Below, piece after piece: positions 5,988-52,606 of a stretch of 64,000 bases of DNA. Each line of letters begins with the position of its first letter. Position 1 is the first letter of the stretch. Source of the stretch: Vicingus serpentipes (GTDB lineage Bacteria; Bacteroidota; Bacteroidia; Flavobacteriales_E; Vicingaceae); NCBI RefSeq assembly GCF_007993035.1, contig NZ_VOOS01000001.1:744001-808000 (forward strand). Direction: 5' to 3'. The notes beneath the pieces are model-generated. The model did not search any database and was not told the DNA's origin. It saw nothing but the letters and a program-made list of their open reading frames with translations. Made by a program: the position numbers and the translations under genes.

Positions 5988-6006
5988 TTATTAATATTGC
6001 TTCTGA

Positions 6007-6753: not shown

Positions 6754-6844
6754 TATTTCAGATTGAAAGATTAACATTTTAACAATCCTTTTATTTTATT
6801 TCTTAACAGGGTTAAAAAACAGCATTTTTATGTTGTTCTTTTAT

Positions 6845-6852
6845 TACTTTTG
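6845..6852 (+). promoter_or_regulatory. -7 box of gcvP promoter
   Basis: TACTTTTG matches TAnnTTTG and lies 31 nt before the ATG at 6884. Its position supports that ATG over the upstream in-frame ATG at 6830, which lies before the predicted transcription start. The -33 element is not obvious. Confidence 0.45.
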
Positions 6853-6883
6853 CTTGCCTTTTTATTTCACAAAACGTACAATT

Positions 6884-9739
6884 ATGTCAATACAAAAATT
6901 TTCTGACCGACACATTGGTCCAAGAGACACTGATGTTAACCAAATGTTAACGGAAATAGGTGTAAACTCTATTGATGAACTTATTAATCAAACAATACCT
7001 TCAAAAATTCGATTAAAAAACGAACTTAATTTAAGTGAGCCTTTAACGGAATATGAATATTTAAATCATATTAAAGATTTATCTCATAAGAATAAAGTTT
7101 ATAAATCATACATTGGATTAGGATATTACAATACAATTTTACCTTCTGTAATTAAGCGTAATGTATTTGAAAATCCAGGATGGTACACTGCTTACACTCC
7201 ATACCAAGCTGAAATTTCTCAAGGAAGATTAGAAGCATTATTAAATTTCCAAACAATAGTATTGGACTTAACAGGTATGGAAATTACAAACGCATCTTTA
7301 CTGGATGAAGGAACTGCTGCTGGTGAAGCTATGATTATGGCATACAACAGTAGAACAAGGGAAGCTAAGAAGAATAATGCTAATGTATTTTTTGTTTCTG
7401 ACAAATGCTTCCCTCAAACGATTGATGTATTAAAAACACGTTCAACCCCATTAGATATTGAATTAATTATTGGTGATTACGAATCATTTGAATTTAATGA
7501 AAAAGTATTTGGAGCTATTGTACAATATCCTGATGCAAGTGGTCAGGTAGAAGATTATGCTTCATTCGTAGAAAGAGCACATGCAAATGAATGTTTAGTT
7601 GTAGTTGCTGCCGATTTAATGAGTTTAGCACTATTAACCCCTCCGGGAGAATGGGGAGCTGATGTTGTTGTTGGAACTACTCAACGTTTTGGTGTACCAA
7701 TGGGTTATGGTGGACCACATGCTGCATATTTTGCTACAAAAGAGGCTTACAAAAGAAATATTCCAGGAAGAATTATTGGTGTTTCTATAGATGACCAAGG
7801 AAACAGAGCCTTAAGAATGGCTTTACAAACAAGAGAACAACATATAAAAAGAGATAAAGCAACCTCTAATATTTGTACAGCCCAAGTGTTATTAGCTGTA
7901 ATTGCTGGTATGTATGGTGTTTATCATGGTCCTGAGGGAATAAAAAATATTGCTTCTTCAATTAATTCTTTAACTAGCAAATTAGCTGGAGCTATTGATA
8001 GTTTAGGATTAAAAAGATTGAACAATAGCTTTTTTGACACATTAACTTATGAAGCTGATGTAACATTAATTTCAAAAATTAAAGAGATTGCTTTAGCAAA
8101 AGAAGTTAACTTTTATTATACTTCAAACACTATTTCTGTTAGTATAGGAGAAACTGAAAATGAAAATAGCATTAATGAAATAGCTTCTATTTTTGCTGAA
8201 GCAACTGGAAACTCATTCCAAGCTTCTACTATTAATGGTATTCCTTCAAAGTTAACTAGAACAACCTCATACTTAACACACGAAAATTTTGCATTATATC
8301 ATTCTGAATCAGATATGATGCGATACATTAAGCGTTTAGAGAATAAAGATTTATCATTAACACATTCTATGATTTCATTAGGTTCATGCACAATGAAATT
8401 AAATGCAGCTTCAGAGTTAATCCCTTTAGGCTGGAATGAGTGGGCAAACATTCATCCTTTTGCTCCAATTAACCAAGCTCAAGGTTATCAAGAAATGTTA
8501 AAAGGTTTAGCTGATGATTTAGCTGAAATTACTGGATTTGATGCGGTAACACTCCAACCTAACTCTGGTGCTCAAGGTGAATATGCAGGTTTAATGGTGA
8601 TTAGAGCTTATCATGAAAGCAGAGGCGACACACATAGAGATATTGCTCTAATTCCTTCTTCAGCTCATGGAACTAACCCTGCAAGCGCGATTATGGCAGG
8701 AATGAAAGTTGTTGTTACTAAATGTGATGAATTAGGAAATATTGATGTCGCTGACTTAAAAGAAAAAGCAGAATTACATGCTGCTAATTTATCTTGTATC
8801 ATGGTAACTTATCCTTCAACTCATGGAGTTTTTGAGGAAAGTATAATTGAAATAACCGACATTATTCATGAAAATGGAGGTCAAGTTTATATGGATGGAG
8901 CGAACATGAACGCACAAGTGGGATTAACAAATCCTGCAAATATTGGTGCTGATGTTTGTCACTTAAATTTACATAAAACTTTCGCTATTCCTCATGGTGG
9001 TGGTGGACCAGGTGTTGGACCAATTGGTGTAGCAAAACATTTAACTGAGTTTTTACCTTCTAACCCAATTGTTAAAACTGGAGGAGAAAATGCAATTACA
9101 TCTATTTCTTCTGCTCCTTGGGGTAGTGCTTACGTATGCTTAATCTCTTATGCCTACATTAAAATGTTAGGTACAGCTGGTTTAAGAAAATCTACTGAAT
9201 TGGCTATTTTAAATGCTAATTACATCAAATCAAAATTAGAAGGACATTATGGTATTTTATATACAAATGAAAACCAACGTGTTGCTCATGAAATGATTTT
9301 AGAATGTAGAGATTTTAAACAAGCTTCAGGAATTGAAGTAACTGATATTGCTAAACGATTAATGGATTATGGGTTCCATGCACCAACTGTATCATTCCCT
9401 GTAGCTGGAACACTTATGGTGGAACCAACAGAAAGCGAAAGTAAAGCAGAATTAGATCGTTTTATTGATACTATGATTAGCATTAAAAATGAAGTAAATG
9501 AAATTCTTTCAGGATCTGCAGATAAAGATGATAATGTATTAAAAAATGCTCCTCATACTTCAAAAGCAATTATTGCTGGAGAATGGAAACATAGCTATTC
9601 TAGAGAAAAAGCTGCATTCCCTTTAGAATGGTTGCAAGATGCAAAATACTGGCCAACTGTTGCTAGAGTTGATAATGCTTATGGGGATAGAAACTTAATT
9701 TGTAGCTGTAACCCTATCGAAGATTACATGGAGGCTTAA
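6884..9739 (+). CDS. gcvP: Glycine dehydrogenase (decarboxylating), P protein
   Basis: 951 residues from the ATG at 6884, the usual size of the single-chain P protein with fused alpha and beta halves. It decarboxylates glycine using pyridoxal phosphate and passes the aminomethyl group to lipoyl-GcvH. The PLP lysine is K698 in LNLHKTFAIPHGGGGPG; the N-terminal half begins with the expected FSDRHIGPR. An upstream in-frame ATG at 6830 would add a hydrophobic MLFFYYFCLPF tail that the family does not have. No gcvT or gcvH is adjacent. lipB, which supplies the lipoyl group for GcvH, is elsewhere in this window (16907-17605). A terminator follows directly. Confidence 0.97.
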   Translation: MSIQKFSDRHIGPRDTDVNQMLTEIGVNSIDELINQTIPSKIRLKNELNLSEPLTEYEYLNHIKDLSHKNKVYKSYIGLGYYNTILPSVIKRNVFENPGWYTAYTPYQAEISQGRLEALLNFQTIVLDLTGMEITNASLLDEGTAAGEAMIMAYNSRTREAKKNNANVFFVSDKCFPQTIDVLKTRSTPLDIELIIGDYESFEFNEKVFGAIVQYPDASGQVEDYASFVERAHANECLVVVAADLMSLALLTPPGEWGADVVVGTTQRFGVPMGYGGPHAAYFATKEAYKRNIPGRIIGVSIDDQGNRALRMALQTREQHIKRDKATSNICTAQVLLAVIAGMYGVYHGPEGIKNIASSINSLTSKLAGAIDSLGLKRLNNSFFDTLTYEADVTLISKIKEIALAKEVNFYYTSNTISVSIGETENENSINEIASIFAEATGNSFQASTINGIPSKLTRTTSYLTHENFALYHSESDMMRYIKRLENKDLSLTHSMISLGSCTMKLNAASELIPLGWNEWANIHPFAPINQAQGYQEMLKGLADDLAEITGFDAVTLQPNSGAQGEYAGLMVIRAYHESRGDTHRDIALIPSSAHGTNPASAIMAGMKVVVTKCDELGNIDVADLKEKAELHAANLSCIMVTYPSTHGVFEESIIEITDIIHENGGQVYMDGANMNAQVGLTNPANIGADVCHLNLHKTFAIPHGGGGPGVGPIGVAKHLTEFLPSNPIVKTGGENAITSISSAPWGSAYVCLISYAYIKMLGTAGLRKSTELAILNANYIKSKLEGHYGILYTNENQRVAHEMILECRDFKQASGIEVTDIAKRLMDYGFHAPTVSFPVAGTLMVEPTESESKAELDRFIDTMISIKNEVNEILSGSADKDDNVLKNAPHTSKAIIAGEWKHSYSREKAAFPLEWLQDAKYWPTVARVDNAYGDRNLICSCNPIEDYMEA

Positions 9740-24753: not shown

Positions 24754-26498
24754 ATGGAAAATTTCGTTGTTTCGGCTAGAAAGTATCGTCCAGTAACATT
24801 TGACTCTGTTGTTGGTCAAGCTGCTATTACCTCTACCCTAAAAAACGCGATTAAGACAGAACATTTAGCTCAAGCATTTCTTTTTTGTGGACCTAGAGGT
24901 GTTGGAAAAACTACCTGTGCAAGAATTTTAGCTAAAACAATAAACTGTTTTAACATTACCGATGGTATTGAAGCATGCGATAAATGTGAGTCTTGTAAGT
25001 CATTTAACGAAGGACATTCATTAAATGTTTATGAATTAGATGCTGCTTCAAACAATTCTGTAGACGACATAAGAAATTTAATTAGTCAAGTAAGTTTTGC
25101 TCCACAACTTGGAACTCATAAAGTTTACATAATTGATGAGGTTCACATGCTATCTGCAGCAGCTTTTAACGCCTTTTTAAAGACTTTAGAAGAACCTCCA
25201 AAACACGCTATATTTATTTTAGCTACTACTGAAAAACATAAAATTATACCCACTATTTTATCAAGATGTCAGATTTTCGATTTCAATCGTATACAAATTG
25301 AAGATATTGCATCTCACTTAGCCAATATAGCAAACAAAGAAACTATTCAAGCAGAAACTGATGCTCTTCATATAATTGCCCAAAAAGCAGATGGTGCGTT
25401 AAGAGATGCGCTATCAATTTTCGACCAAATTGTAAGTTTTTCAGGTAACAATATTACCTACCAAGATGTTATTGATAATTTAAATATACTTGATTATGAT
25501 TATTATTTTAAATTAACTGATGCTATTTTTACTAAAAACATTAGCGAATGTCTTTTAATTTTTAATGAAATCTTAAATAAAGGTTTTGATGGACACAACT
25601 TTATTAATGGTTTAGCTGAGCACATAAGAAACTTATTAGTTTGTCAAGATGCATCTACTATAAGTTTACTTGAAGTTGGTGAGAATATTAAGGAAAAATA
25701 TAAACAACAAGCACAGAGCAATTCAACACCTCTTTATCTTGAATTTTTAAACATTATTTCAAAAGCTGACACTTCTTATAAAAGTAGTAAAAATCATCGA
25801 CTGCTTGTAGAAATTATGTTAATGCAATTATGCTCTGCTAGCTCTAGCAACGAAAAAAAAAAGCCTTAATTAATCTGCCTTTTAAAACTAAAAAGACAGA
25901 AAAAAATCAGCAACCACGACAAGAAACTACTTCTACCCCTCAAAAAGTTTCAACACTAAATATTAGCACCCCCCCTGAAACGGATAATAATATTATAAAA
26001 AAGCCAACGCTAACTCTTAAAAACTCAGCTAGCTTATCGTTTTCGGATTCAATTTCAATAAAAAAATCAGAAACAAAAAACAATCTTAAAGAAGATTTAA
26101 ATCAAGACTTATCTTCAAAACCAACCGAACCATTTACAAAAGATGCCTTTGCTAAAAAATGGAATCAATACAGAAATTTACTTTTAAAAGAAGGTAAATC
26201 CAGTTTAGCTAGCATATTTGAAACTGCTCCACTCATTGAGGAAAACGACATTACTGTAACTCTTGAGAACAAAGCTTTAGATGATGAATTTAATGCTCAA
26301 AAATCTGAACTACTAGACTTTATAAGAAAAGAACTTAGCAATTATAGCATTTCAGTAACTTCAATCATCAATAAAGAGGTGATGATGAAAAAAGCTTACA
26401 CACCTCAAGAAAAGTTCATGAAAATGAGCGAGAAAAATCCAGCTCTAATTAATTTAGCAAAAGCTTTTGACGCAGAAATTGGTTATCCTCTAGATTGA
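24754..26498 (+). CDS. dnaX: DNA polymerase III gamma/tau subunit, two-frame gene with A10 shift site
   Basis: The zero frame (24754-25869) encodes 371 residues with the AAA+ clamp-loader core: Walker A GPRGVGKTT (48-56), a zinc-binding four-cysteine module (C64 region, CDKCESCKSF), Walker B VYIIDEVHML, sensor 1 LATTEKH and an SRC motif (ILSRCQIF). It ends EKKKP-stop immediately after an A10 run. Re-reading one base there (-1 shift) opens 211 further codons to the stop at 26498 and gives a 581-residue product of normal DnaX length, with a charged linker and the C-terminal domain starting near FAKKWNQYRNLLLKEGKSSLAS. The core should be a gamma-like short form and the shifted product tau-like. 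A homopolymer miscount (A10 for A11) is the alternative explanation; decay is unlikely because both parts look intact and the gene is essential. Confidence 0.88.
25852..25869 (+). promoter_or_regulatory. Candidate -1 frameshift/transcript-slippage site in dnaX
   Basis: Codons GAA AAA AAA AAG CCT TAA. The run of ten A (25853-25862) plus G contains A-AAA-AAG, the same heptamer used in E. coli dnaX, and the zero-frame stop follows two codons later. No convincing downstream stem-loop is visible, so RNA-polymerase slippage, as described for Thermus dnaX, is at least as likely as ribosomal slippage. Confidence 0.55.
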
Positions 26499-26526
26499 TT
26501 AAAAAACCGAAAAAAGAACTTAAAAT

Positions 26527-26559
26527 AAAAAAGCTCCACTTAAAAAGTGAAGCTTTTTT
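26527..26559. terminator. Terminator after dnaX, probably the original tRNA-Val terminator
   Basis: AAAAAAGCT-C-CACTT, loop, AGTG-A-AGCTTTTTT. It follows the dnaX stop and directly abuts the leftover tRNA-Val 3' end at 26562. Before integration it would have served dnaX (+) and tRNA-Val (-) convergently. Confidence 0.75.
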
Positions 26560-26561
26560 AT

Positions 26562-26581
26562 TTGTGGGCGATGAGGGATTC
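26562..26581. repeat. attL: orphan copy of the tRNA-Val 3' end
   Basis: 20 bp identical to 31574-31593. Sequence diverges right after it (cttaccg versus cgaaccc), so this copy is not a functional tRNA. Confidence 0.88.
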
Positions 26582-26666
26582 TTACCGTAAATATCATTAA
26601 GACAAAACAAGAACACAAACTCTTATATAACATATAGTTTAAGCGTATATAAGATAATTCAATATA

Positions 26667-26712
26667 CTTAAAATTGCTTAATTATGCTTAAATTTGGGTA
26701 CAATTAAGGTAC
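26667..26712. repeat. Tandem CTTAA repeats and paired GGTAC motifs before the integrase gene
   Basis: Three 10-bp degenerate units, CTTAAAATTG, CTTAATTATG and CTTAAATTTG (26667-26696), run directly into two GGTACAA motifs (26697 and 26708, 11 bp apart). The GGTAC pair recurs with the same 11-bp spacing at the right end (31514-31529). Likely roles are integrase arm sites, excisionase sites or control of the int promoter (inference). Confidence 0.55.
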
Positions 26713-26725
26713 AAAATAGAAGTGT

Positions 26726-27934
26726 ATGATAGCAAAAGCAGTATTTCATCAAGGTAAAGTAAAAATTCATTACCAAAATAAAACAAGAGCTAAAAGAATT
26801 AACACTGGCGTAACTATTACCTCAGCTTCTGAAATATCAAAAGATGGGAGGCTAAAATCTACTGTTAAAGATGTTGAAAGAAAACAAGTAATAATCAACA
26901 AATTTAAAAAAGATGCTCAGGACTTAGTTGATGGACACTTTCATAAACACGACAACTACCCTACTGGAGACGAATTCAATAAACTTTGGTCAAAAAGAGA
27001 TAATCTGTTAGTTCGCTCAGAGAGACTGTTAGATTTCTATGATAGATTTTTAGCATGGAAACCAAAAGACAGAAATATTAAAAAGCTATCTTCATTAAAA
27101 GATTATAATAGCTTAAAGAAAAATCTAACTGATTACGAAAGTTTTCTCGGAGAAGAAATAATGCTCGGTGATATCAATAAGGAATGGTTAGGAGAATTTG
27201 AGGCATATTTAACAGGTTGTAAAGATGATAGCTATACTTCTAAAACGAATCATAAACTTGAAACACGAAAAAAGCGAATTAGAACACTAAAAGCTTTTTT
27301 TAACTGGATGGATGAAAGCGATTTATTCACTATTCCAAAAGCATTAAGTAATTTTAAAAGTGAACAAGGTGTTGCTGAAACTGTAAAAGCAGTATTAACC
27401 AAAGCTGAAGTAATTAAACTATATAAAAAAAAGTTTTCTGACCCAAAAAAGGAATTTATAAAAGATGTATTTGTGTTCACTTGCTATACTGGGTTGAGGT
27501 TTTCAGATTTAATTAGCTTGACTAAACGACATATTAAAGAATTAGATTCAGCAGGAACAACTATAATAAAAAAAGCAGTCAAAACAGGCTATGAATTTTC
27601 TATTCCTTTAAATAAAGTCGCTCTTGAAATCTTAGAGCTTTATGATTATGATTTTTCAAGATATGACAATGCTAATTTTAACAAGTACCTACACATTCTT
27701 TTGAAAGAAACAGAAATGTTTGATGATGAACTGGATTTTGAAGAAGAGGTTAAAGAAAGATGGGAGTGCTTATCCATTCATAGAGGGCGAGACACTTTCA
27801 TAACACTATTAATACAAGAGCGTGTTCCATTGAATGAAATAATGAAGTACACAGGTCACAGGTCTGTTTCTAACCTCAACAAATATATCGACACTAAAGG
27901 GGAGTTGATTAATTATACAAAAGAGTTGATATAA
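26726..27934 (+). CDS. Tyrosine recombinase/integrase
   Basis: 402 residues. An N-terminal arm-DNA-binding-like domain (1-90, including FHQGKVKIHYQNKTRAKRINTG) is followed by a SAM-like core-binding domain (about 100-205) and a catalytic domain. Catalytic residues: R258 in TGLRFSDLISL, H352 and R355 in SIHRGRDTF, H378 in TGHRSVSNL and nucleophile Y387. This is the Bacteroidota phage_int_SAM_5-type family. It lies 145 bp from attL and reads into the element. All catalytic residues are present, so it is probably active. Confidence 0.95.
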   Translation: MIAKAVFHQGKVKIHYQNKTRAKRINTGVTITSASEISKDGRLKSTVKDVERKQVIINKFKKDAQDLVDGHFHKHDNYPTGDEFNKLWSKRDNLLVRSERLLDFYDRFLAWKPKDRNIKKLSSLKDYNSLKKNLTDYESFLGEEIMLGDINKEWLGEFEAYLTGCKDDSYTSKTNHKLETRKKRIRTLKAFFNWMDESDLFTIPKALSNFKSEQGVAETVKAVLTKAEVIKLYKKKFSDPKKEFIKDVFVFTCYTGLRFSDLISLTKRHIKELDSAGTTIIKKAVKTGYEFSIPLNKVALEILELYDYDFSRYDNANFNKYLHILLKETEMFDDELDFEEEVKERWECLSIHRGRDTFITLLIQERVPLNEIMKYTGHRSVSNLNKYIDTKGELINYTKELI

Positions 27935-27980
27935 TTATTTTTTTTTATATATTTTTGATGGTACTATTTAAGATGTAATT

Positions 27981-28673
27981 ATGAAAAATGTATTCCCCCC
28001 CTTTATTATATTAATATTTATTTTTAGCACATCATGTAATAAAGAAGATTCTTCTCCAGAACCAACTCCAGTTGTAGCAACAACTCCAACACCTACTGGA
28101 CCAACTTCTTCGGATACAGTTCAAGATTTACTCGACAACGGCTCTACACCAATTGAAATATTCAATCAAGGCTATACATTATCAGAAATATATTGCAAAA
28201 CCTATTCTGGGGGGTATATCTTTTACTTAGATACTATATCAGGTAAAGGTTTGGTTTGTTCAACATCTGACTTTATGAATGGTGTAACTTGGGACCCAAC
28301 TGGAACACCTACGCAAGATTTTACTTATGTTTATCTTGGTGTTACAGATACTGCTATTTGGTCTGGGCAACAAAATACAACATCAATAGCTTTATTAAGA
28401 CCAACTTCACCTTTTGCAAGTGTTGAGGCATTAACTCTTGCGGGATATAATGATTGGTTTATTGCTTCTAAAAATGAAAGTATATTAATGTTTAATGTTC
28501 TTGGCGTAGATGGGTGTAATTTACTCTCAACAGGATTAAATGAGGTATATTGGACTTCATCGGAACTCAATAACATAGCAGCTTATAGGATGATAAACTA
28601 TTCAGGCGTAGGTGATGGTTCCGCCTATCAGAAGCATTCTGAGTATTCTATTAGACCAATTAGAAAATTTTAA
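27981..28673 (+). CDS. Lipoprotein with DUF1566/FISUMP-like domain
   Basis: 230 residues. Lipoprotein signal with lipobox STSC (C19), followed by a Pro/Thr-rich spacer (about 25-48) and a C-type-lectin-like or FGE-like domain. The domain shows GGYIFYLD near its start, AGYNDWFIASKNE in the middle, then VYWTSSE and YSIRPIRKF at the end, the pattern of DUF1566 and FISUMP proteins. An acidic CNKEDSS tail after the cysteine suggests surface export in Bacteroidota. It is the first cargo gene and forms a pair with the next gene, 2 nt away. Function unknown, perhaps ligand binding at the surface. Confidence 0.8.
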   Translation: MKNVFPPFIILIFIFSTSCNKEDSSPEPTPVVATTPTPTGPTSSDTVQDLLDNGSTPIEIFNQGYTLSEIYCKTYSGGYIFYLDTISGKGLVCSTSDFMNGVTWDPTGTPTQDFTYVYLGVTDTAIWSGQQNTTSIALLRPTSPFASVEALTLAGYNDWFIASKNESILMFNVLGVDGCNLLSTGLNEVYWTSSELNNIAAYRMINYSGVGDGSAYQKHSEYSIRPIRKF

Positions 28674-28675
28674 AT

Positions 28676-29476
28676 ATGAAAAAATTAATTTATTTTACTT
28701 CAATTGCTCTTATAATTTTAAGTTCGTGCTCTAAAGAAAGTAATGATGTAGCTCCAATACCTACATTAACAACAACTCCCACACCTTCACCTTCACCTTC
28801 ACCTTCACCTTCACCTTCAATTGTGAGTAATCCTGGAAATGGAGTTACCGATTTAGATGGAAATTCTTATCCAAGTATTGTTTTGGGAAATGGTCAAGAA
28901 TGGATGGGTGAAAACTTAAAAACAACTAAATATTCAAACGGTGACAGCATACCAGAAATTACAAATGGAGGTCAATGGTCAGGGTTAGCTACTGGAGCAT
29001 ATTGCTGGTACAACAATGATTCTGCTTCTTATGAAACCCCTTATGGTAAACTTTATAATTGGTTCACAGTTGCTGACTCAAGAAATGCATGTCCTACTGG
29101 CTGGAGAGTTCCTTCAGATGATGACTGGAAGATGTTAGAGTATTATTTAGGTATGGACTCTGTAGAGTTGGACTCAATAAACATTATGACAAGAGGAACT
29201 GACGAGGGTGGAAAACTTAAGGAAACAGGAAGTACTCATTGGTCAATTACAAATATAGGAGCCACTAACGAAATAAATTTTACCGCTGTTCCTGCAGGAT
29301 ATAGAGATGTTACTTCAAGTTTTAATGTCATCAATGGAGCGACATGGTTTTGGTCATCAAATGCTTTTGATACTCAAAATGCTATTTCAAGAGCTCTACC
29401 AGGAGGTGGAACTGAAATTACACGATGGACTGATGATAAAGGAGAAGGTTACTCTGTTAGGTGTATAAAAAATTAA
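28676..29476 (+). CDS. Lipoprotein, Fibrobacter succinogenes major paralogous (FISUMP) domain
   Basis: 266 residues. Lipobox LSSC (C18), then a Pro-Ser repeat spacer (six CCTTCA units) and a FISUMP domain (about 60-266). Diagnostic segments are VTDLDGNSYPSIVLGNGQEWMGENLKTTKYSNG, YCWYNND, YGKLYNWF, CPTGWRVPSDDDWKMLE, GGKLKE, FTAVPAGYRD and the terminal GYSVRCIKN. Many Bacteroidota and Fibrobacteres carry such exported proteins; their function is not established. It is co-transcribed with the preceding lipoprotein. Both are cargo of the element. Confidence 0.88.
   Translation: MKKLIYFTSIALIILSSCSKESNDVAPIPTLTTTPTPSPSPSPSPSPSIVSNPGNGVTDLDGNSYPSIVLGNGQEWMGENLKTTKYSNGDSIPEITNGGQWSGLATGAYCWYNNDSASYETPYGKLYNWFTVADSRNACPTGWRVPSDDDWKMLEYYLGMDSVELDSINIMTRGTDEGGKLKETGSTHWSITNIGATNEINFTAVPAGYRDVTSSFNVINGATWFWSSNAFDTQNAISRALPGGGTEITRWTDDKGEGYSVRCIKN
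28784..28819 (+). repeat. Six tandem CCTTCA hexamers coding (Pro-Ser)6
   Basis: Six perfect 6-bp units inside the lipoprotein gene. Changes in copy number would alter spacer length without changing frame. Confidence 0.9.
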
Positions 29477-29752
29477 ATAGCTTTTTTTTAGATAAATAAT
29501 TTACTAATTAAAGGTGTAATTTTTTAGGTAAAAATCATCTACCAATGCTCGTGCAAATAATAAGCTCGAAAAAGTTTTTTATAAAAATATTACGTTGAGG
29601 TAGGCACAAATTTTTCACCCCATTTTTGGATAACAAAAAGACAACCAATGAGTTTGCCCCTATTATTATTGATTAGCAAGGCAAAAAAACAATATGCTCA
29701 TTTACTTAGAATGTTCAACTATTAAAGAATGAACGAGTCAACCATTAAAAAT
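29477..29752. other. Noncoding stretch within the element
   Basis: No credible gene. AT-rich; one possible 25-codon reading (MSLPLLLLISKAKKQ) at about 29648 is too short to support. No clear terminator or repeat is seen. Confidence 0.5.
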
Positions 29753-30034
29753 TTAAAGATTTAGGTTTTTTAACCCTTTAAGGAAATCTTCTATAAATAG
29801 AATTGATTTTTTAGAGATGCAAATTAAATAGTAATCAACTAATTTCTGGTTAAAATTATATCCATCAACAAATGATAAACTTGGAGAAAATACATACTTA
29901 GTTGATGTTCTATTAAAGTAGAATGTATCTATCACATTTTTACCCCTATCAATAGATTCAATCATTACTCTTTTACCTGAGTGAATTATCCCTTCCGATA
30001 AGTGTTGGTCGTAGTCTGTTATTGTTATTTTCAT
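29753..30034 (-). CDS. Small hypothetical protein
   Basis: 93 residues from the ATG at 30034 (MKITITDYDQHLSEGIIHSG). The frame stays open upstream to 30106, but that extension is less protein-like. Composition is plausible for a small folded cytosolic protein with alternating beta and helix. No family is recognised and there is no signal peptide. It lies on the opposite strand to all other genes in the element. It may be a chance ORF. Confidence 0.35.
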   Translation of the reverse strand: MKITITDYDQHLSEGIIHSGKRVMIESIDRGKNVIDTFYFNRTSTKYVFSPSLSFVDGYNFNQKLVDYYLICISKKSILFIEDFLKGLKNLNL

Positions 30035-30499
30035 AGGTTGAGTTTTAAGCATAAACTTTTTTCCCGTGATAATCTGGGATTGCAGGATTAACATCGCAAC
30101 AAGCACAAAATAACACAGAGTATAATTCTATTTTGGTTATAACCTCAACTGCTTACATAGAATTATTATGCCCATCTACACACCCCTCCCGTAAGGTCAG
30201 CATCTCTTCATTTCTAAATATCACGGACACAAGTTGGCAAGTTTCAGCCAGGGCTTGGATTTATTGATGCTTCATGTATGGACTACCGCTTTTTGGTTTG
30301 TTACATCACAGTTAGCAACTTGGAAGTAGCCCGAACCGAACTCCCATTTCAAATAAATAGGAAAAAAAAAGATGAATTCGCAGTTGTCAACTACAAATAA
30401 TGAACCTATTATTAAACCAATGTTTATTTAGCTATTTGTTGTATTTGTAACTTTTCTGATTCGAATCGTTATAGCTCCGAACCCATTAAAATAAGAAAC
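30035..30499. other. Noncoding region of unusual composition in the element
   Basis: About 460 bases without a convincing gene. The part near 30180-30350 is visibly richer in G and C than its surroundings. It contains two perfect 10-bp palindromes, GGTTATAACC (30135-30144) and GATTCGAATC (30458-30467), and an inverted pair CAAGTTG (about 30213) / CAACTTG (about 30317). Possible roles are a structured RNA, an operator region for the next gene or the remnant of a lost gene. Confidence 0.4.
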
Positions 30500-31012
30500 A
30501 TGGAAAAACAATTAGAAAAAATTATCAAAAACTATTCTTTAAGAATAGAGGAAAAGATTAATGAAGTAATAATAGAAATACCAACAAAAGGAAGCTCATA
30601 TTCTATTGAAATATTCAAAAGCATCCAATTTGCTGAAAACATAAACTTTAGACGGAAATTTTTAAAGACCATTATGTTTAATAAAGGAAGCTTTATAGGA
30701 AATTTTATTGAGACACTAAAAAAAGAAAATGAAAAAGACTACTCTATCATATTTCAAAAAAATGATGAAGATTTTTTAATTGATTTTTATGTTTGGGTCA
30801 ATGCTCAAAGTAATGATAAGAGAAAGTATTTTGTTAATCTGTTAATTGATTATAACATATTAAAACTTAAAAATTTATTTCATGCTATTAGCTTAATCGA
30901 AAAAAACGATATATCGTGTGGAGTAAATTTTAAAGATGGATTTAATGAGATAAATAGCTATGATAGAGATTTCTTCATTCAAATAAATAAATGGATAAAT
31001 CTAAAAAATTAA
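30500..31012 (+). CDS. Hypothetical protein of the element
   Basis: 170 residues, Lys/Ile/Asn-rich, no signal peptide or membrane segment, probably cytosolic and mixed alpha/beta. Several aromatic patches (DFLIDFYVWVNAQ, DFFIQINKWINL) suggest a folded domain. No family recognised. The GATTCGAATC palindrome lies 32 bp upstream. The HTH gene follows 33 bp later in the same direction, so the two may be co-expressed. Confidence 0.6.
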   Translation: MEKQLEKIIKNYSLRIEEKINEVIIEIPTKGSSYSIEIFKSIQFAENINFRRKFLKTIMFNKGSFIGNFIETLKKENEKDYSIIFQKNDEDFLIDFYVWVNAQSNDKRKYFVNLLIDYNILKLKNLFHAISLIEKNDISCGVNFKDGFNEINSYDRDFFIQINKWINLKN

Positions 31013-31045
31013 TAGTAAAGTGTTATGAAGCTTAAATGAAACAAG

Positions 31046-31441
31046 ATGGGAAACAATGCTAACGATATAAATATATTACCTATTCTAATACAGATGCTTC
31101 TGAATGGAGTTGAAGAGAATCATTTAGATGAATATATTTGTAAGTGGATATTAGATGAAAAATCCAAAAAAGCATTTTTCACTTCATTACCTGACAAGCT
31201 TCTGACACTCTGCTCACAAATTAAAAGGAAAGAGCTTGAAAATAAAGTAAAACTTCAACATACTATAAAGAATGTTTCTAAGAAACTTTATAAAGTTAAA
31301 GAGGCAGCGAAGCTCCTTAACTTATCAGAGCCAAAACTAAGAGAAATGATTGCAGATGGAACAATTAACACTGTTAATCCAAGTAAATCTCCAAGAGGAA
31401 CAAAGATTTGTTCTTCTGAAATTGAACGATTAATGCAATAA
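31046..31441 (+). CDS. Excisionase-like helix-turn-helix protein
   Basis: 131 residues. The C-terminal 50 residues form an HTH_17/excisionase-type domain (LYKVKEAAKLLNLSEPKLREMIADG, then SPRGTKICSSEIERLM). The N-terminal 75 residues are helical and unassigned. It sits 130 bp from attR at the end opposite the integrase. It is a good candidate for the directionality factor of excision, or a regulator of the element (inference). A strong terminator follows. Confidence 0.78.
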   Translation: MGNNANDINILPILIQMLLNGVEENHLDEYICKWILDEKSKKAFFTSLPDKLLTLCSQIKRKELENKVKLQHTIKNVSKKLYKVKEAAKLLNLSEPKLREMIADGTINTVNPSKSPRGTKICSSEIERLMQ

Positions 31442-31464
31442 ATTAAGATAAATTTTAAAACAAG

Positions 31465-31494
31465 AAGAGCTTAGATAAAATAAGCTCTTTTTTT
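31465..31494 (+). terminator. Intrinsic terminator after the HTH gene
   Basis: AAGAGCTTA, loop, TAAGCTCTT followed by a T run: a 9-bp stem, 24 nt after the stop codon. Confidence 0.85.
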
Positions 31495-31513
31495 GTGCCT
31501 TTTTTTTAAATAA

Positions 31514-31529
31514 GGTACGAATTGGGTAC
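31514..31529. repeat. Paired GGTAC motifs at the right end of the element
   Basis: GGTACGA at 31514 and GGTACAA at 31525, spaced 11 bp, like the pair before the integrase gene (26697 and 26708). They lie 45-60 bp inside attR, consistent with arm-type integrase binding. Confidence 0.5.
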
Positions 31530-31535
31530 AATAAA

Positions 31536-31564
31536 AAAAGCCTTGCAGTAATAGCAAGGCTTTT
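31536..31564. terminator. Hairpin at the right edge of the element, terminates tRNA-Val
   Basis: AAAAGCCTTGC, loop AGTAATA, GCAAGGCTTTT, with seven T on the minus strand after the stem. Minus-strand transcripts from tRNA-Val meet it first. It lies inside the element, so it replaces the displaced chromosomal terminator at 26527-26559. Confidence 0.8.
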
Positions 31565-31573
31565 AATGTTTTC

Positions 31574-31593
31574 TTGTGGGCGATGAGGGATTC
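31574..31593. repeat. attR: 3' end of tRNA-Val
   Basis: 20 bp identical to 26562-26581. It covers the 3' acceptor strand and part of the T arm of the intact tRNA, plus a few flanking bases. Confidence 0.88.
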
Positions 31594-31651
31594 GAACCCC
31601 CGACCCCCTCGGTGTAAACGAGGTGCTCTGAACCAACTGAGCTAATCGCCC
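31577..31651 (-). tRNA. tRNA-Val (anticodon TAC)
   Basis: 75 nt. Acceptor stem GGGCGAT/ATCGCCC with discriminator A, D arm TAGCTCAGTTGGTTCAGAGC, anticodon stem CCTCG/CGAGG around loop TTTACAC (anticodon TAC, reads GUA) and T arm with GGTTCGAATCC. CCA is not encoded. The gene is intact although the element is inserted at its 3' end. Confidence 0.96.
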
Positions 31652-31732: not shown

Positions 31733-32761
31733 CTAGTAATCTATATTTTCCGACAAATATTGTTCCCACTTCCAAGCAGAAATGACCATTTCTTTTATTC
31801 CAAATTGAGGTTCCCAGCCTAATATTTCTTTTGCTTTTGCTGAATTTGAATAAATACTCTCCACATCACCATCTCGTCTTGGCCCTACAGAATAATTTAA
31901 TTTTAGATTATTCTCTTTCTCAAAAGCATTTATTATTTCAAAAACACTCACTCCATTTCCACTTCCTAAATTGATTACATCATAATTTAGACTTCCTTTA
32001 TCTTCACTTAATTTTTTTAATGCTAAAACATGAGCATGAGCAATATCACTAACATGAATATAATCTCGAACACAAGAACCATCCTTTGTAGCGTAATCAC
32101 TTCCATAAACCTGAAACTCCTTTAATCTACCTATTGCAGTTTGAGTAATGTATGGCAACAAATTATTTGCCTGCGGTTGGATTTCTCCATTTAAACCACT
32201 ATTATGAGCTCCAACTGGATTGAAATATCTTAAGCTAATGGCTTTTAAAGATTTGTTCGCTTTTATAAAGTCAGAAATTATATTCTCGCCAACCTGTTTA
32301 GTGTAAGCATAAGGCGATTCAGGGAAATTCAATTTAGAACTTTCAGTAACAGGTAATTCTGTAATGTTTCCGTAAACTGAACAAGAAGAAGAAAATATAA
32401 AGTTTGGTATTTTTTGGTCTTTTTGAATCTTTAGAATATTTACCAAACCTCCTAAATTATTCTCATAATATTTTAAAGGATTTTCTACTGAATCTCCAAC
32501 CCATTTATGAGCTGCAAAATGGATAATTCCTTCAATATTTTGGTATTGACTAACAACCTCTAAAACTTCATTAAAATTTTTAAGGTCGACTTTATGGTAG
32601 CTTATTTTCTTGCCTGTAATTCGTTCTATTCGAGCATAAGTATCTTCAGAAGAGGTAGAATAATCATCTAAAGAGATTACTTTCCAATCTGTATTTTCTA
32701 AAATATCTATTATTGTATGAGAACCAATATACCCAGCTCCTCCTGTTATTAAAATTTGCAT
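31733..32761 (-). CDS. galE: UDP-glucose 4-epimerase
   Basis: 342 residues, extended short-chain dehydrogenase. NAD-binding GGAGYIGSH (7-15), SSSCSVYG (catalytic serine region, about 124-131) and Y-x-x-x-K in SPYAYTKQ. It interconverts UDP-glucose and UDP-galactose (or the N-acetyl forms) for surface polysaccharide. Its start overlaps the end of the wecB-like gene by 13 nt, so they form one transcript. Confidence 0.95.
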   Translation of the reverse strand: MQILITGGAGYIGSHTIIDILENTDWKVISLDDYSTSSEDTYARIERITGKKISYHKVDLKNFNEVLEVVSQYQNIEGIIHFAAHKWVGDSVENPLKYYENNLGGLVNILKIQKDQKIPNFIFSSSCSVYGNITELPVTESSKLNFPESPYAYTKQVGENIISDFIKANKSLKAISLRYFNPVGAHNSGLNGEIQPQANNLLPYITQTAIGRLKEFQVYGSDYATKDGSCVRDYIHVSDIAHAHVLALKKLSEDKGSLNYDVINLGSGNGVSVFEIINAFEKENNLKLNYSVGPRRDGDVESIYSNSAKAKEILGWEPQFGIKEMVISAWKWEQYLSENIDY

Positions 32762-33825
32762 TTAAAATCACTTAATAAATAGTCAATAATTTTTTTAGAG
32801 GCTGTTCCCCCTCCATAAAGATTTACATCACTATTAAAGCTAGCATTCAACCTATCTCTAACAGCGGAAATAATTTTCGCTTTATCTGCTCCAACTAAAA
32901 CATTTACACCATTATTTATCAATTCTACCCATTCTGTTTCATTTCTCAATGTTACACAGTATTTTTTTAGAATATATGCTTCCTTTTGAATTCCTCCGCT
33001 ATCAGTTAAAACAAGTCTTGAGTTTTTAATCAAATTAAGCATTTGAACATACCCAACAGGTTCTACAATATCTGCTTCAACCTTAATATTAAGGTCTTTT
33101 ATTTTTTGCTTAGTTCTTGGATGTAATGGGATTAAAACTTTTACACTCTTGCTCAGCTCATTTATTGCGCTAATTATATCTGTTAGTCTTTTTATATCAT
33201 CCGTATTTTCTTGTCTATGAATCGTACACAAAATATAGTCATTATCCAACTTAAGTATATTACGTTCATTAGGTTTCATCGAATAAAATAAAACTGCATC
33301 ATTCATAACATCCCCAACATTTACTACTTTATTTTCTAAATTATCAAATCCTTCTTTCTTTAAATTTTCAAATGATTGCTCTGTTGGGCAAAACAAATAA
33401 TCAGATATTCTATCTGTCAATATTCTATTAATCTCCTCTGGCATTTTCATATTAAAACTTCTTAATCCAGCCTCAACATGCGCTACAGGTATATGCATTT
33501 TTTTAGCTGCTAATGCTCCTGCTAAAGTTGAATTAGTATCTCCATAAACCAATAATAAATCTGGAGATTCTTTAAATAAAATCTTTTCAATTTCTTCTAT
33601 CATACGACCCGTCATAGCACCATGAGTTAGACTATTAATCCCTAAATTATATTTAGGCTTAGGAATCTCCATTTCATCAAAAAACACATCTGACATGTTT
33701 TTATCGAAATGTTGGCCTGTATGAACTATTACCTCATCTATTTGATTGTGTTTACTGAATTCTCTACTTAATGCTCCTGCTTTTATAAATTGAGGTCTAG
33801 CTCCTAGAATTGTAAGAATCTTCAT
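32749..33825 (-). CDS. wecB: UDP-N-acetylglucosamine 2-epimerase (non-hydrolysing)
   Basis: 358 residues. The GT-B-like epimerase fold is marked by LGARPQFIKAGAL, VHTGQHFDKNMSDVFF, VYGDTNSTLAGALAA, HVEAGLRSFNMKMPEEINR, HRQEN and the C-terminal DSGGIQKEAY. It makes UDP-ManNAc, which can feed nonulosonate synthesis or capsule sugars. It is followed by galE with a 13-nt overlap. The symbol reflects the family; a sugar-specific paralogue cannot be excluded. Confidence 0.92.
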   Translation of the reverse strand: MKILTILGARPQFIKAGALSREFSKHNQIDEVIVHTGQHFDKNMSDVFFDEMEIPKPKYNLGINSLTHGAMTGRMIEEIEKILFKESPDLLLVYGDTNSTLAGALAAKKMHIPVAHVEAGLRSFNMKMPEEINRILTDRISDYLFCPTEQSFENLKKEGFDNLENKVVNVGDVMNDAVLFYSMKPNERNILKLDNDYILCTIHRQENTDDIKRLTDIISAINELSKSVKVLIPLHPRTKQKIKDLNIKVEADIVEPVGYVQMLNLIKNSRLVLTDSGGIQKEAYILKKYCVTLRNETEWVELINNGVNVLVGADKAKIISAVRDRLNASFNSDVNLYGGGTASKKIIDYLLSDFKCKF

Positions 33826-47859: not shown

Positions 47860-49188
47860 TTGAAAAAAATACTCATATTAGCATATGATTTCCCTCCATA
47901 TATATCAGTTGGTGGCTTAAGACCTTATGGCTGGTATAAAAATTTATCAGAATTTGGTATTTACCCAATAGTAGTTACACGTCAATGGGAAAACAAAAAA
48001 GGCAATAAGTTAGATTACATCTTACCTAGTAAATCAGATTATAAAATAATAGACCATAATAAAGAAGGAACAATTATTAAAGCTCCATTCAAGCCTAACA
48101 TTAGTAATAAGCTTTTGTTAAAATATGGAGAAAAAAGATTTAAATTTATTCGTAAGTTAATATCAGCTTATTACGAGTTTATTCAATATATTTTCATAAT
48201 TGGCCCTAAAGCTCAAATCTATAAAGAAGCAAATAATTTTCTAAAAGAAGAACAAGTAGATGTCATTATTGCAACAGGAGATCCTTTTGTTCTTTTTAGT
48301 TATGCTAATAAATTATCCAAAAAACATAATATTCCTTGGATAGCAGATTATCGAGATCCTTGGTCACAAGACATCCCAATTCAGAAGTATAAATTATATC
48401 AAAAGTGGTGCTCCTTTTTTGAAAAAAAAATAATTCCTCAAGCAAAAACAATAACTACGGTTTCTGAATTTTTAAAAATAAAAATCATGGAATTAACAAA
48501 AATAAATAATGCATATATTATTTATAATGGGTATGATGAAGATTTAGTTAAAATGACAAGTCATCTAAGCCAAAACAAAGATAAAATGAGTGTTGCTTAT
48601 ATGGGAACTATTTACGATTGGTATCCCATTAATAATTTTTTTATGGTTGTATTAAAATTTATTGAAGAATATGAACCTAATAATTTTGAAATTAATTTTT
48701 ACGGAATTAACAAAGAAGTTGAGCTTAAAGAGCTTATTAATACAAGATATAAAAAGTTAGAAGGATTTATTAACATATACCCTAAAATGCAGAACTCAGA
48801 ATTATTAAAAAAAATAGCAACAGATAATTTGTTTTTATTATTTAATAATTATTCATTTTTAGGGACTAAAATATTTGATTATGTTGCTTTAAAACGTAAA
48901 ATACTCTTTTGTTATACTGATGATTTTGAATCAAAAAGGCTGAAAAAACAACATTATTTGATAGAGGAGCTAGGATCAGAATTTCAGCATTTACAAGAAG
49001 ACATGCTTAAGTCCACCAACTCAGCTATAATTATTAAAGATGAGCTACATTTGAATGATGTTTTAAAAGAATTGTACAAAGAGTTCTCAAAAAAAAGGAC
49101 TATTTCATGTGATGCTGTTAATACGGAAATGTATTCACGAAAAATTCAAACTCAAGAGTTGGCGAAAATAATACTTAATATTGTATAA
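47860..49188 (+). CDS. Glycosyltransferase, GT4-like
   Basis: 442 residues from a TTG 3 nt after the previous stop. LAYDFPPYISVGGLRPYGWYKNL at the N-terminus is typical of GT4 proteins in surface-sugar loci. IADYRDPWSQDIP and the donor half with VAYMGTIYDWYPINNFF and FLGTKIFDYVALKRKILFCYTDDFE follow. The last residues overlap the upstream end of the open HisH frame. Sugar not identifiable. Confidence 0.85.
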   Translation: MKKILILAYDFPPYISVGGLRPYGWYKNLSEFGIYPIVVTRQWENKKGNKLDYILPSKSDYKIIDHNKEGTIIKAPFKPNISNKLLLKYGEKRFKFIRKLISAYYEFIQYIFIIGPKAQIYKEANNFLKEEQVDVIIATGDPFVLFSYANKLSKKHNIPWIADYRDPWSQDIPIQKYKLYQKWCSFFEKKIIPQAKTITTVSEFLKIKIMELTKINNAYIIYNGYDEDLVKMTSHLSQNKDKMSVAYMGTIYDWYPINNFFMVVLKFIEEYEPNNFEINFYGINKEVELKELINTRYKKLEGFINIYPKMQNSELLKKIATDNLFLLFNNYSFLGTKIFDYVALKRKILFCYTDDFESKRLKKQHYLIEELGSEFQHLQEDMLKSTNSAIIIKDELHLNDVLKELYKEFSKKRTISCDAVNTEMYSRKIQTQELAKIILNIV

Positions 49189-49198
49189 TAGTTTAAAT

Positions 49199-49810
49199 AT
49201 GATAGTGATTATAGATTATAAAATGGGTAATTTGTTATCCGTAAAGAAGAAAATAAACCAACTATCATCAAATGTTATTGTAAGTTCAGATATTACAGTT
49301 ATTAAATCTGCAGACAAAATAATACTTCCAGGAGTTGGCCATTTTGGAAAAGCAATGGAAAACTTAAAAAAGTTAAACCTTATTAATATTTTAAATAATT
49401 TAGTAATTGAAGAGAAAAAACCTGTCTTAGGAATATGTTTAGGAATGCAAATAATGACTAAAAAAAGTGAAGAAGGTAATGTTCAAGGTTTAGATTGGAT
49501 TGATGCAGAGGTAATTAAATTTAAAGTGAATGATACGTTAAAATTTAAAGTGCCACATACTGGTTGGAATCAAATTATTAGCAACAAGGACAGTAGATTA
49601 ATGGTTGGAATACCTGATGGATCTGAATTTTATTTTGTCCATTCATACCATGTTAAAACAAATAATACTAATATCACTTTAAATACAACTGTATATGAAC
49701 ATGAGTTTATATCTGCTTTTCAGCAAGAGAATATTTTTGGTGTTCAATATCATCCAGAGAAAAGTCATGATGTTGGGGTGCAATTACTGAAAAATTTTAT
49801 AGCATTATAG
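49199..49810 (+). CDS. HisH-like glutamine amidotransferase (sugar amidination)
   Basis: 203 residues from the ATG at 49199 (MIVIIDYKMGNLLSV). Class I amidotransferase: nucleophile Cys in LGICLGMQIM (about 82), FYFVHSYH and FGVQYHPEKS with the His-Glu pair. It releases ammonia from glutamine. It is followed at once by a HisF-like gene and a WbpG-like gene and has no other histidine genes around. It is therefore taken as the HisH2-type partner for sugar acetamidino formation rather than histidine synthesis. Confidence 0.88.
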   Translation: MIVIIDYKMGNLLSVKKKINQLSSNVIVSSDITVIKSADKIILPGVGHFGKAMENLKKLNLINILNNLVIEEKKPVLGICLGMQIMTKKSEEGNVQGLDWIDAEVIKFKVNDTLKFKVPHTGWNQIISNKDSRLMVGIPDGSEFYFVHSYHVKTNNTNITLNTTVYEHEFISAFQQENIFGVQYHPEKSHDVGVQLLKNFIAL

Positions 49811-49811
49811 T

Positions 49812-50564
49812 ATGTTTAGACCTCGAGTCATACCAGTTTTATTATTAAAAGGACAAGGCTTAGTGAAAACTGTAAAATTTACTAAGCCAAATTATATTGG
49901 AGATCCTATTAATGCTGTAAAAATTTTTAATGATTTAAAAGCTGATGAACTAGTTTTTTTAGATATTCTAGCAAGCAAAGAAAAACGATTAATTTCATTA
50001 GATTTCGTCAAAGATGTTGGTGAAGAAGCAAATATGCCATTTGCTGTTGGTGGAGGTATTAGAACAATAGAAGATATTAGATCTATAATTGGAGTTGGTG
50101 CAGAAAAAGTCATTATTAATACTTATGCTGCTGAAAATCCAGACTTTATAAAACAAGCCGCAAATACTTTTGGCTCATCAACAATTGTAGTATGCATAGA
50201 TGTCAAAAAAAAACGATTTGGAAATCTAAAAACATGGATATTAGGTGGTACTAAAGTTACTAAATATGATCCAGTAGAGTTTGCAAAATTAATGGAGGAA
50301 AAAGGATCTGGGGAAATTATAATACAATCGATTGATAGAGATGGGAACATGGAAGGGTACGATATTGATTTAATTAAAAAAATATCAGAAGCTGTAACTG
50401 TTCCAGTTATTGCTTTGGGTGGAGCTGCAAAGATTACAGATCTTCAAGAGGCATATGTTAATGGATATGCTAATGGTCTAGCTGCTGGTAGCATGTTTGT
50501 ATACCATGGAAATCAAAAAGGAGTACTAATTAATTATCCTGAAAAAGGAAGTTTAACTTTTTAA
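49812..50564 (+). CDS. HisF-like protein of the amidination complex
   Basis: 250 residues, TIM barrel. RVIPVLLLKGQGLVKTVKFTKPNYIGDPINAVKIFN at the N-terminus: where cyclase HisF has RIIPCLDV with catalytic D11, this protein has Leu at that position (VLLL), so imidazole-ring cyclase activity is not expected. The second aspartate (VVCIDVKKKR, about 130) and the barrel phosphate loops (AVGGGIRT, ALGGAAK) remain. The protein probably channels ammonia from HisH to the WbpG-like enzyme, as in P. aeruginosa O-antigen loci. Confidence 0.9.
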   Translation: MFRPRVIPVLLLKGQGLVKTVKFTKPNYIGDPINAVKIFNDLKADELVFLDILASKEKRLISLDFVKDVGEEANMPFAVGGGIRTIEDIRSIIGVGAEKVIINTYAAENPDFIKQAANTFGSSTIVVCIDVKKKRFGNLKTWILGGTKVTKYDPVEFAKLMEEKGSGEIIIQSIDRDGNMEGYDIDLIKKISEAVTVPVIALGGAAKITDLQEAYVNGYANGLAAGSMFVYHGNQKGVLINYPEKGSLTF

Positions 50565-50576
50565 TTTTAAAATTAA

Positions 50577-51695
50577 TTGAAAAAAAAAGAATATAAGCAA
50601 TGTACTAGATGTGTAATGGACACTAGTGATCCGTTTATCGAGTTTGATGAAGAAGGATATTGTAATCATTGTAAAGAGTTTTTTGAAAAAACAGCTAAAT
50701 TAGTTTATCAAGGAGAAGAAACTGACAAACAACTCGCTATAGAGCTTGAAAAGATTAAGCAAGATGGAAAGGGGAATCCTTACGATTGTATAATAGGAGT
50801 AAGTGGAGGTATTGATAGTAGCTATGTCCTATATAAGGCCGTTCAATTAGGATTAAGACCTTTAGCTGTTCATATGGATAATGGATGGAATTCTGAAGAG
50901 GCAGTTAAAAATATTAAGAATGTATGTAGCAAATTAGGTGTTGATTATCAAAGTTATGTTCTAGATTGGGAAGAGTTTAAAGATATACAACTTGCTTTTT
51001 TAAGAGCTTCAATAGTTGAAATGGAAATACCTACAGACACAGCTATACCTGCAGCATTGCATAAAATAGCTGCTAACAACAAAGTAAAACATGTGATTAG
51101 TGGAGGTAACTATGCTACTGAAGGGATTTTACCAAATAGTTGGTTTTACGACCCTAAAGATTTAAAACTATTAAAAAGTATTCATAGAAAATATGGTACA
51201 AAAAAATTAAAGACGTTTCCTGCTTTTGATTATAAAAAAGAGATTTATTATAAGAAGGTTAGAGGAATTAGAATATTTTATCTTTTAAATTACGTTCCTT
51301 TTTCTAAAGATGATGCGATGGCATTACTTCAAGAAAACCTTGGATGGCAGTATTATGGGGGTAAACATTATGAATCTAAGTTTACGGGCTTTATTCAATC
51401 CTATCTTCAGCCTATTAAATTTGGTGTCGACTACCGAAAAGCGACATTCTCCACACAAATATGTACTGGTGAAATAACCAGAGAAGAAGCAATTAAAGAA
51501 TTAAAAAACTTACCCTACAATGCAGAAAAAATAGATGCAGAAAAAGAATATGTCGCAAAAAAACTTGGAATTACTTTAACAGAATTTGAAGATATATTAG
51601 CACTACCCATAAAAACTTATAATGATTATCCAAACAATGAAAAACTACTTACTTTTTTATACAATACATATCGAAAATTAAAAATTAATTCTTGA
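50577..51695 (+). CDS. N-acetyl sugar amidotransferase (WbpG/PseA/LegG family)
   Basis: 372 residues from a TTG. Two CxxC pairs (C9/C12 in CTRCVMDTSDP and C29/C32 in CNHCKEF) likely bind zinc. The PP-loop ATP motif is GVSGGIDSSY (74-83), followed by GNYATEGILPNSW. The family turns an acetamido group of a sugar (for example on Leg/Pse acids or ManNAc3NAcA) into acetamidino, using ammonia from HisH/HisF-like partners, which are encoded directly upstream. Confidence 0.9.
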   Translation: MKKKEYKQCTRCVMDTSDPFIEFDEEGYCNHCKEFFEKTAKLVYQGEETDKQLAIELEKIKQDGKGNPYDCIIGVSGGIDSSYVLYKAVQLGLRPLAVHMDNGWNSEEAVKNIKNVCSKLGVDYQSYVLDWEEFKDIQLAFLRASIVEMEIPTDTAIPAALHKIAANNKVKHVISGGNYATEGILPNSWFYDPKDLKLLKSIHRKYGTKKLKTFPAFDYKKEIYYKKVRGIRIFYLLNYVPFSKDDAMALLQENLGWQYYGGKHYESKFTGFIQSYLQPIKFGVDYRKATFSTQICTGEITREEAIKELKNLPYNAEKIDAEKEYVAKKLGITLTEFEDILALPIKTYNDYPNNEKLLTFLYNTYRKLKINS

Positions 51696-51735
51696 AGAAT
51701 ATAGTTCTTATTGAACTGTGAAAAATTTATAAAAA

Positions 51736-52602: not shown

Positions 52603-52606
52603 CTCC

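What the first reader, a model, noticed from the sequence alone, without database searches (positions are those of the whole stretch)
26562..31593. Minimal 5-kb integrative element in tRNA-Val with lipoprotein cargo
Perfect 20-bp attL/attR repeats from the tRNA 3' end, an intact integrase at one end and an excisionase-like HTH at the other, yet no mobilisation or replication genes. Cargo is two exported FISUMP/DUF1566 lipoproteins plus unknown proteins. It could be a satellite that moves with help from another element, and may be undescribed.
Basis: partly seen in the sequence, partly recalled or inferred. Interest (0 to 1): 0.68.

Follow-up and report, generated by a model that had tools for sequence, protein, structure and literature searches.

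The report
Tiny tRNA-inserted element with surface-protein cargo
A 5,000-letter stretch of a bacterial genome is a very small mobile element that has slotted into a tRNA gene and carries two surface proteins, and its compact layout was also found complete in one unrelated ocean bacterium, so it may belong to a wider kind of minimal gene carrier.

Summary
26562-31593 is a 5,012-bp integrative element in the 3' end of tRNA-Val(TAC): two exact 20-bp att copies, a tyrosine integrase with its catalytic residues, an excisionase-like HTH protein, and no recognised transfer or replication gene. Joining the flanks restores the tRNA followed at once by a terminator. At 28 other tRNA-Val(TAC) sites of the same family no copied tRNA end or integrase was seen in the up to 1.5 kb examined; no close relative of the integrase was found in 45 other family or 394 other class genomes. 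New here: a pair of GGTAC motifs 11 bp apart lies just inside each end, the only two such pairs in the window; they look like integrase arm sites. A pattern scan of 84,980 species found the pair beside tRNA 3' ends elsewhere (15 of 16 hits, 13 of them at alphaproteobacterial tRNA-Ser). One, a 5,623-bp SAR116 island, is a complete twin in layout. A class-wide scan with a reversed control, however, showed no excess of the bare pattern. The cargo is two lipoproteins with FISUMP/DUF1566-type binding domains, probably surface-displayed. The kind (tRNA-borne cargo island without its own transfer genes) is known; this member, and perhaps the signature, are new. How it transfers is not shown.

The parts
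26523..26563 (-). chromosomal terminator that originally followed tRNA-Val, now beside the displaced tRNA end
   Evidence: terminator scan; same AAGCTTCACT stem after tRNA-Val in two relatives, L037 and L060
26562..26581 (.). left att copy: displaced last 18 bases of tRNA-Val plus 2
   Evidence: exact 20-bp copy
26697..26712 (.). GGTAC-N6-GGTAC pair, presumed arm-type site, 13 bases before the integrase start codon
   Evidence: one of only two such pairs in the window; arm-site role inferred
26726..27934 (+). tyrosine integrase, 402 aa
   Evidence: Pfam, PHROGs, NCBIfam; residues
27981..28673 (+). LP1, lipoprotein, 230 aa, DUF1566-like
   Evidence: Lcl_C below cut-off; phrog_4245 6.6e-11; CNKED after the lipobox fits the export rule in PMC5080379
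28676..29476 (+). LP2, lipoprotein, 266 aa, FISUMP domain; hexamer repeat CACCTT x6.3 at 28782-28819 encodes a Pro-Ser linker
29753..30034 (-). probable small gene, 93 aa, unknown
   Evidence: codon score above other frames, weak; no family match for the longer 117-aa reading
30035..30499 (.). intergenic stretch between divergent genes; possible control region, transfer or packaging site (speculative)
   Evidence: 30107-30499 scores non-coding; no Rfam match above gathering; no unusual fold for 30040-30460
30500..31012 (+). P5, 170 aa, unknown; no relative found
31046..31441 (+). excisionase-like HTH protein, 131 aa
   Evidence: HTH_17 over cut-off, 'excise' just under, excisionase PHROGs
31514..31529 (.). 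second GGTAC-N6-GGTAC pair, presumed arm-type site
31536..31564 (-). terminator supplied by the element for tRNA-Val
31574..31593 (.). right att copy, 3' end of tRNA-Val
31576..31651 (-). tRNA-Val(TAC), intact
   Evidence: ARAGORN

Best explanation
A 5,012-bp integrative cargo island. Shown by sequence: it sits in the 3' end of tRNA-Val(TAC), gives the tRNA back its 3' end with a replacement terminator, and leaves the displaced end beside dnaX. Inferred: the integrase binds the GGTAC pairs near the two ends and the core in the tRNA and recombines them; the HTH protein tips the reaction towards excision; the pair just ahead of the integrase start would let the integrase repress its own gene. 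The excised circle has no recognised transfer genes, so it most likely spreads by hitching: packaged by a phage, carried in vesicles, mobilised through an unrecognised transfer origin, or taken up as DNA. The cargo, two lipoproteins with C-type-lectin-like binding domains, probably changes what the cell surface binds.
For: Exact att copies; catalytic residues; excisionase-like HTH; joined flanks give a full tRNA-Val followed by a terminator; gene block not found in relatives; matched GGTAC pairs, the only two in the window; a SAR116 island with the same layout and its own 20-bp att copies.
Against: No excised circle, no exact two-flank empty site and no conspecific genome were available. dnaX is not beside a tRNA in any of the 29 relatives' dnaX loci read (11 further matched genomes were not read), so the original arrangement is inferred. 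About 0.7 kb looks non-coding (29480-29750 and 30107-30499), which could mean decay. G+C does not stand out overall.
Confidence: 0.75

Rival explanations
1. A remnant: a larger island or prophage that lost its replication and transfer genes and now stays put.
For: About 0.7 kb of non-coding DNA inside; no transfer genes recognised; no second copy or close relative found.
Against: Integrase open with catalytic residues, both att copies exact, both presumed arm pairs kept, a twin of nearly the same size and layout in SAR116.
Confidence: 0.17
2. A phage satellite in the narrow sense, induced and packaged by a particular helper phage.
For: Small size and int/xis-like pair; FISUMP relatives occur on viral contigs, in L181 and L182 beside proteins matching virion families.
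Against: None of the six ORFs matched a capsid, terminase, primase or AlpA-type satellite gene; no helper was sought or found.
Confidence: 0.15
3. Ancestral chromosome with a chance repeat.
For: G+C like the surroundings.
Against: A 20-bp match not expected by chance, matched pairs at both ends, block absent from the relatives searched.
Confidence: 0.02

Closest known systems
SAR116 island in L151 (AG-893-M18, CACNSW010000019.1); I know of no description of it
   Same: tRNA end, arm pair, about 5 kb with an HTH regulator and unknown ORFs, integrase at the far end reading inward, arm pair just before its start, second 20-bp tRNA-end copy beginning GAATCCC
   Different: tRNA-Ser instead of tRNA-Val; Fis-type HTH instead of HTH_17; other cargo; integrases only 25% identical over 215 residues
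Riemerella anatipestifer 10K genomic island (PMC6764341, abstract and passages)
   Same: tRNA-borne island of the same broad group with tyrosine integrase and perfect direct repeats; most of 12 ORFs unknown; shown there to excise as a circle
   Different: 10 kb, tRNA-Arg, 53-bp repeat, integrase beside the tRNA; no lipoprotein cargo reported in the passages seen
Tycheposons (described in PMC10872708, passages; the original paper was not seen)
   Same: tRNA border, tyrosine recombinase, cargo, size within the 4-200 kb quoted there
   Different: Defined in other phyla; carriage in vesicles or capsids is recalled by me and untested here
PICMI, minimalist phage satellites of Vibrionaceae (PMC10803314, abstract and one section)
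   Same: Small island with few genes
   Different: PICMIs integrate beside fis and encode three core proteins for excision and replication; this one is in a tRNA and no replication gene was recognised
IMEs (review PMC5704250, passages)
   Same: Integrated and dependent on a helper; some IMEs carry only an oriT
   Different: No relaxase or mobilisation protein recognised; unlike a CIME the integrase is present

Membership tests
tRNA-targeting integrative genomic island | Direct repeats from a tRNA 3' end at both borders | tested here: met
tRNA-targeting integrative genomic island | Integrase with catalytic residues inside the borders | tested here: met
tRNA-targeting integrative genomic island | Empty sites or absence in relatives | tested here: inconclusive
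   28 of 28 other tRNA-Val(TAC) loci without visible insert, but no exact two-flank empty site
Tycheposon | tRNA border, tyrosine recombinase, cargo, 4-200 kb | tested here: met
   features as quoted in PMC10872708
Tycheposon | Carried in vesicles or viral capsids (recalled) | not testable with these tools
   needs particle DNA
Canonical IME | Encodes a relaxase | tested here: not met
   no relaxase family among the six ORFs
IME with oriT only | Transfer origin used by a helper | not testable with these tools
   no oriT search was possible; no Rfam match or strong fold in the intergenic stretch
PICMI | Integration beside fis, with replication genes | tested here: not met
   site is tRNA-Val; no replication family hit
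CIME (decayed cis-mobilizable element) | Has lost its integration genes but kept att sites | tested here: not met
   integrase open and complete
Diversity-generating retroelement acting on the lipoproteins | Template repeat nearby with changes at adenines, and a reverse transcriptase | tested here: not met
   no template-like repeat of either 3' end in the window (ungapped); no RT among the six ORFs; rest of the genome not tested

The most novel reading that the evidence does not exclude
Minimal cargo islands of about 5-6 kb form a phylum-spanning class with one plan: tRNA end, terminator, GGTAC pair at 11-bp spacing, regulator and cargo, integrase at the far end with a second GGTAC pair in front of it, displaced 20-bp tRNA end. 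The pair beside a tRNA end would then be a sequence-only signature for islands whose genes are all unknown.
Probability: 0.3. Interest if true: 0.7.

Novelty: new member of a known kind. Interest (0 to 1): 0.48.

Why it matters
It is a very small integrative element that can be delimited from sequence, with both ends, both presumed arm sites, integrase and an excisionase-like gene in 5 kb, which makes it a handy minimal model. Its surface-protein cargo suggests that such islands swap cell-surface binding traits. If the arm-pair signature holds, islands made only of unknown genes could be found and delimited from DNA alone.

Tried and rejected
A diversity-generating retroelement (both lipoprotein domains are known targets): no template-like repeat in the window. 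A structured RNA in the non-coding middle: the only Rfam match up to E=5 was one at 4.9, far below its gathering score; 30040-30460 folds no better than shuffles on either strand; repeats there are short two-copy matches; matches of 29480-30500 in the family were short and weak (best other E 4.7e-5). FISUMP genes of relatives as cargo of similar islands: 26 FISUMP matches lie in 17 of 46 genomes; of the 15 FISUMP regions I read (L114-L128), none had an ORF matching our integrase at 1e-3 (a weak test). Folding P5 and LP2 gave mean pLDDT 39.4 and 33.9, too poor for a fold search, so none was run. Notebook entry 2 called 13 of the 16 genome-contig hits chance-like; reading them reversed that.

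Results against the signature idea: in 262 class genomes the GGTAC form hit 5 and the GTACC form 9, while the reversed-pattern control hit 14 and 15 genomes by my count of the columns, so the bare pattern is not enriched. Of those hits only the window itself and two GTACC hits (L173, and L169 by eye) sit at tRNA ends. Only 1 of the 15 tRNA-side hits (L151) shows a second tRNA-end copy in the DNA held, and the 13 at tRNA-Ser are alphaproteobacterial and may share descent.

Full report
What is there. Two exact 20-bp copies of the tRNA-Val(TAC) 3' end lie at 26562-26581 and 31574-31593, with no other match in the window at up to three mismatches and none in shuffles. The intact tRNA is at 31576-31651 on the - strand. 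Between the copies are an integrase, two lipoproteins, a probable small gene on the other strand, an unknown 170-aa protein and an HTH protein. A codon score trained on six neighbouring genes is positive for the five main ORFs and near zero but above the other frames for the small reverse one; 29480-29750 and 30107-30499 score as non-coding.

Insertion. Joining the flanks at the att copy gives a complete tRNA-Val followed at once by a terminator. Two relatives, L037 and L060, have a terminator with the same AAGCTTCACT stem after their tRNA-Val. At the tRNA side the element carries its own terminator, 31536-31564. So the insertion left the tRNA whole and terminated.

Relatives. At E<=1e-20 the integrase has a match in 3 of 46 family genomes: this one and two with distant homologues at 26-33% identity. 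At 1e-40 it has none in 394 other class genomes, with at most four candidates scored per genome. Searches for close relatives found none in viral contigs or genome contigs; phage and plasmid records hold only matches under 60% identity, 21-29% in the rows listed. P5 has none in 394 other class genomes at 1e-5, and the HTH protein none in 394 other phylum genomes at 1e-8. Of 30 tRNA-Val loci fetched, one is the window and one had no ARAGORN call; the other 28 show no copy of the tRNA end, no arm pair and no match to a small integrase set in the 356-1,502 bases held downstream. Of 12 wider tRNA contexts fetched, four keep tRNA and epimerase gene together (L077, L079, L080, L082). dnaX is not near a tRNA in the 29 relatives' dnaX loci read, so the exact two-flank empty site is missing.

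Machinery. The integrase keeps R258, a lysine near 286, H352, R355, H378 and Y387 in an alignment with four other integrases (the lysine is my assignment). The HTH protein passes the HTH_17 cut-off and matches excisionase PHROGs weakly. Pairs GGTAC-N6-GGTAC lie at 26697 and 31514, the only two in the window; other spacings from 8 to 15 gave one pair, in the opposite sense. In the 0.93 Mb of loci then held, no 11-bp pair occurred outside copies of the window. That they are arm sites is inferred from place, spacing of one helical turn and symmetry.

The same plan elsewhere. The pair 40-70 nt from TTCGAACC gave one match in the window, 0 in viral contigs and 16 genome contigs. In 15 of 16 the match ends inside a tRNA called by ARAGORN, so that the pair lies 25-53 nt past its 3' end: 13 at tRNA-Ser in SAR116, Rhodobacteraceae and other Alphaproteobacteria, one at tRNA-Pro in a Clostridia MAG, one at tRNA-Lys in a Proteobacteria MAG. 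The pattern itself asks for a T-loop word, so tRNAs are partly built in; by a rough estimate of mine, not run, one to five hits were expected by chance; no control scan of that collection was possible. Of ten nearby proteins scanned, two are integrases (L148, L159); others are caspase, cytosine methylase, HNH, beta-lactamase-fold and MORN proteins, and two had no match. The sixteenth, L152 (Dokdonia MAG), has the pair next to a terminator-like stretch and what I read as a tRNA 3' fragment. In the class sample G179 shows pair, terminator-like stretch and tRNA-Val(TAC), and G223 pair, terminator-like stretch, a tRNA-like fragment and an integrase. Against this, the bare pattern was no commoner than its reversed control in 262 class genomes (5 and 9 genomes against 14 and 15), and in viral contigs integrases lay within 500 bp in 6 of 120 loci against 0 of 120, but tRNAs in 0 against 3.

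The twin. L151 (SAR116) holds tRNA-Ser(TGA) 1376-1465, a terminator-like stretch (by eye), an arm pair at 1518, five ORFs without a Pfam match, a Fis-type HTH protein, integrase 5602-6978 on the - strand, an arm pair at 6989 just before the integrase start, and a second 20-bp copy GAATCCCACCCTCTCCGCCA at 7069; the period is 5,623 bp against 5,012 in the window. The integrases are 25% identical over 215 residues, so the shared plan is either very old or convergent.

Cargo. LP1 begins its mature part CNKED, fitting the published export rule C-X-K-(D/E)2; LP2 has CSKES, a partial fit (PMC5080379, passages). FISUMP and DUF1566 domains are similar to each other and both occur as targets of diversity-generating retroelements, for which a C-type-lectin-like fold is proposed, in one example on a predicted lipoprotein (PMC4159848, passages). 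LP2 relatives occur at 11 loci of viral contigs, several in large proteins, and L181 and L182 have neighbours matching virion families. So the cargo most likely binds something outside the cell; the ligand is unknown.

Print. In the open-access library held, searches for tycheposon (8 papers), tyrosine recombinase with arm-type and Bacteroidetes terms, FISUMP with integrase (none), flavobacterial islands, NBU1 arm-type (none), tRNA-Val islands, GGGTACAA with integrase and att (nothing relevant in the listing) and GTACCC with arm-type and integrase (none) showed no description of this element or of the pair signature. Subscription papers are mostly not covered.

Noticed in passing
window 24754-26499: dnaX stops after 371 aa just behind a run of ten A, and another frame continues to 26499. 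Relatives L007 and L008 have such a run but read on in frame to about 600 aa; L010, L021 and L031 stop right after it. Looks like tau/gamma production by slippage that comes and goes between species.
   Followed up: partly
L178 841-3703 (G000:C2): Second tRNA-linked integrase in the same genome, beside tRNA-Ser, lacking the usual first arginine (reads GYAYSD), with a 266-aa unknown and a 97-aa HTH_17 protein; the order integrase, roughly 260-aa unknown, HTH_17 recurs in L110 and L175. No second tRNA-end copy in 39 kb.
   Followed up: partly
L176 3961-4104 (G179:C5): In another family of the class, a GTACC pair and a terminator-like stretch lie just past tRNA-Val(TAC), suggesting an island at the same tRNA; neighbouring ORFs have no integrase match and the contig ends nearby.
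   Followed up: partly
L180-L189 (IMG/VR): FISUMP domains occur in proteins on viral contigs, several of 480-1,065 aa, for L181 and L182 among virion-type genes: possibly receptor-binding proteins.
   Followed up: partly
window 31733-33825 and 49181-57071: The element borders sugar-nucleotide genes, and amidotransferase, asparagine-synthase-like and glycosyltransferase genes lie further on: apparently a surface polysaccharide region.
   Followed up: no
L145-L160: Alphaproteobacterial tRNA-Ser genes repeatedly carry a TGGGTAC pair about 50 nt downstream next to varied cargo genes (caspase, methylase, HNH, MORN): probably a recurrent island site.
   Followed up: partly
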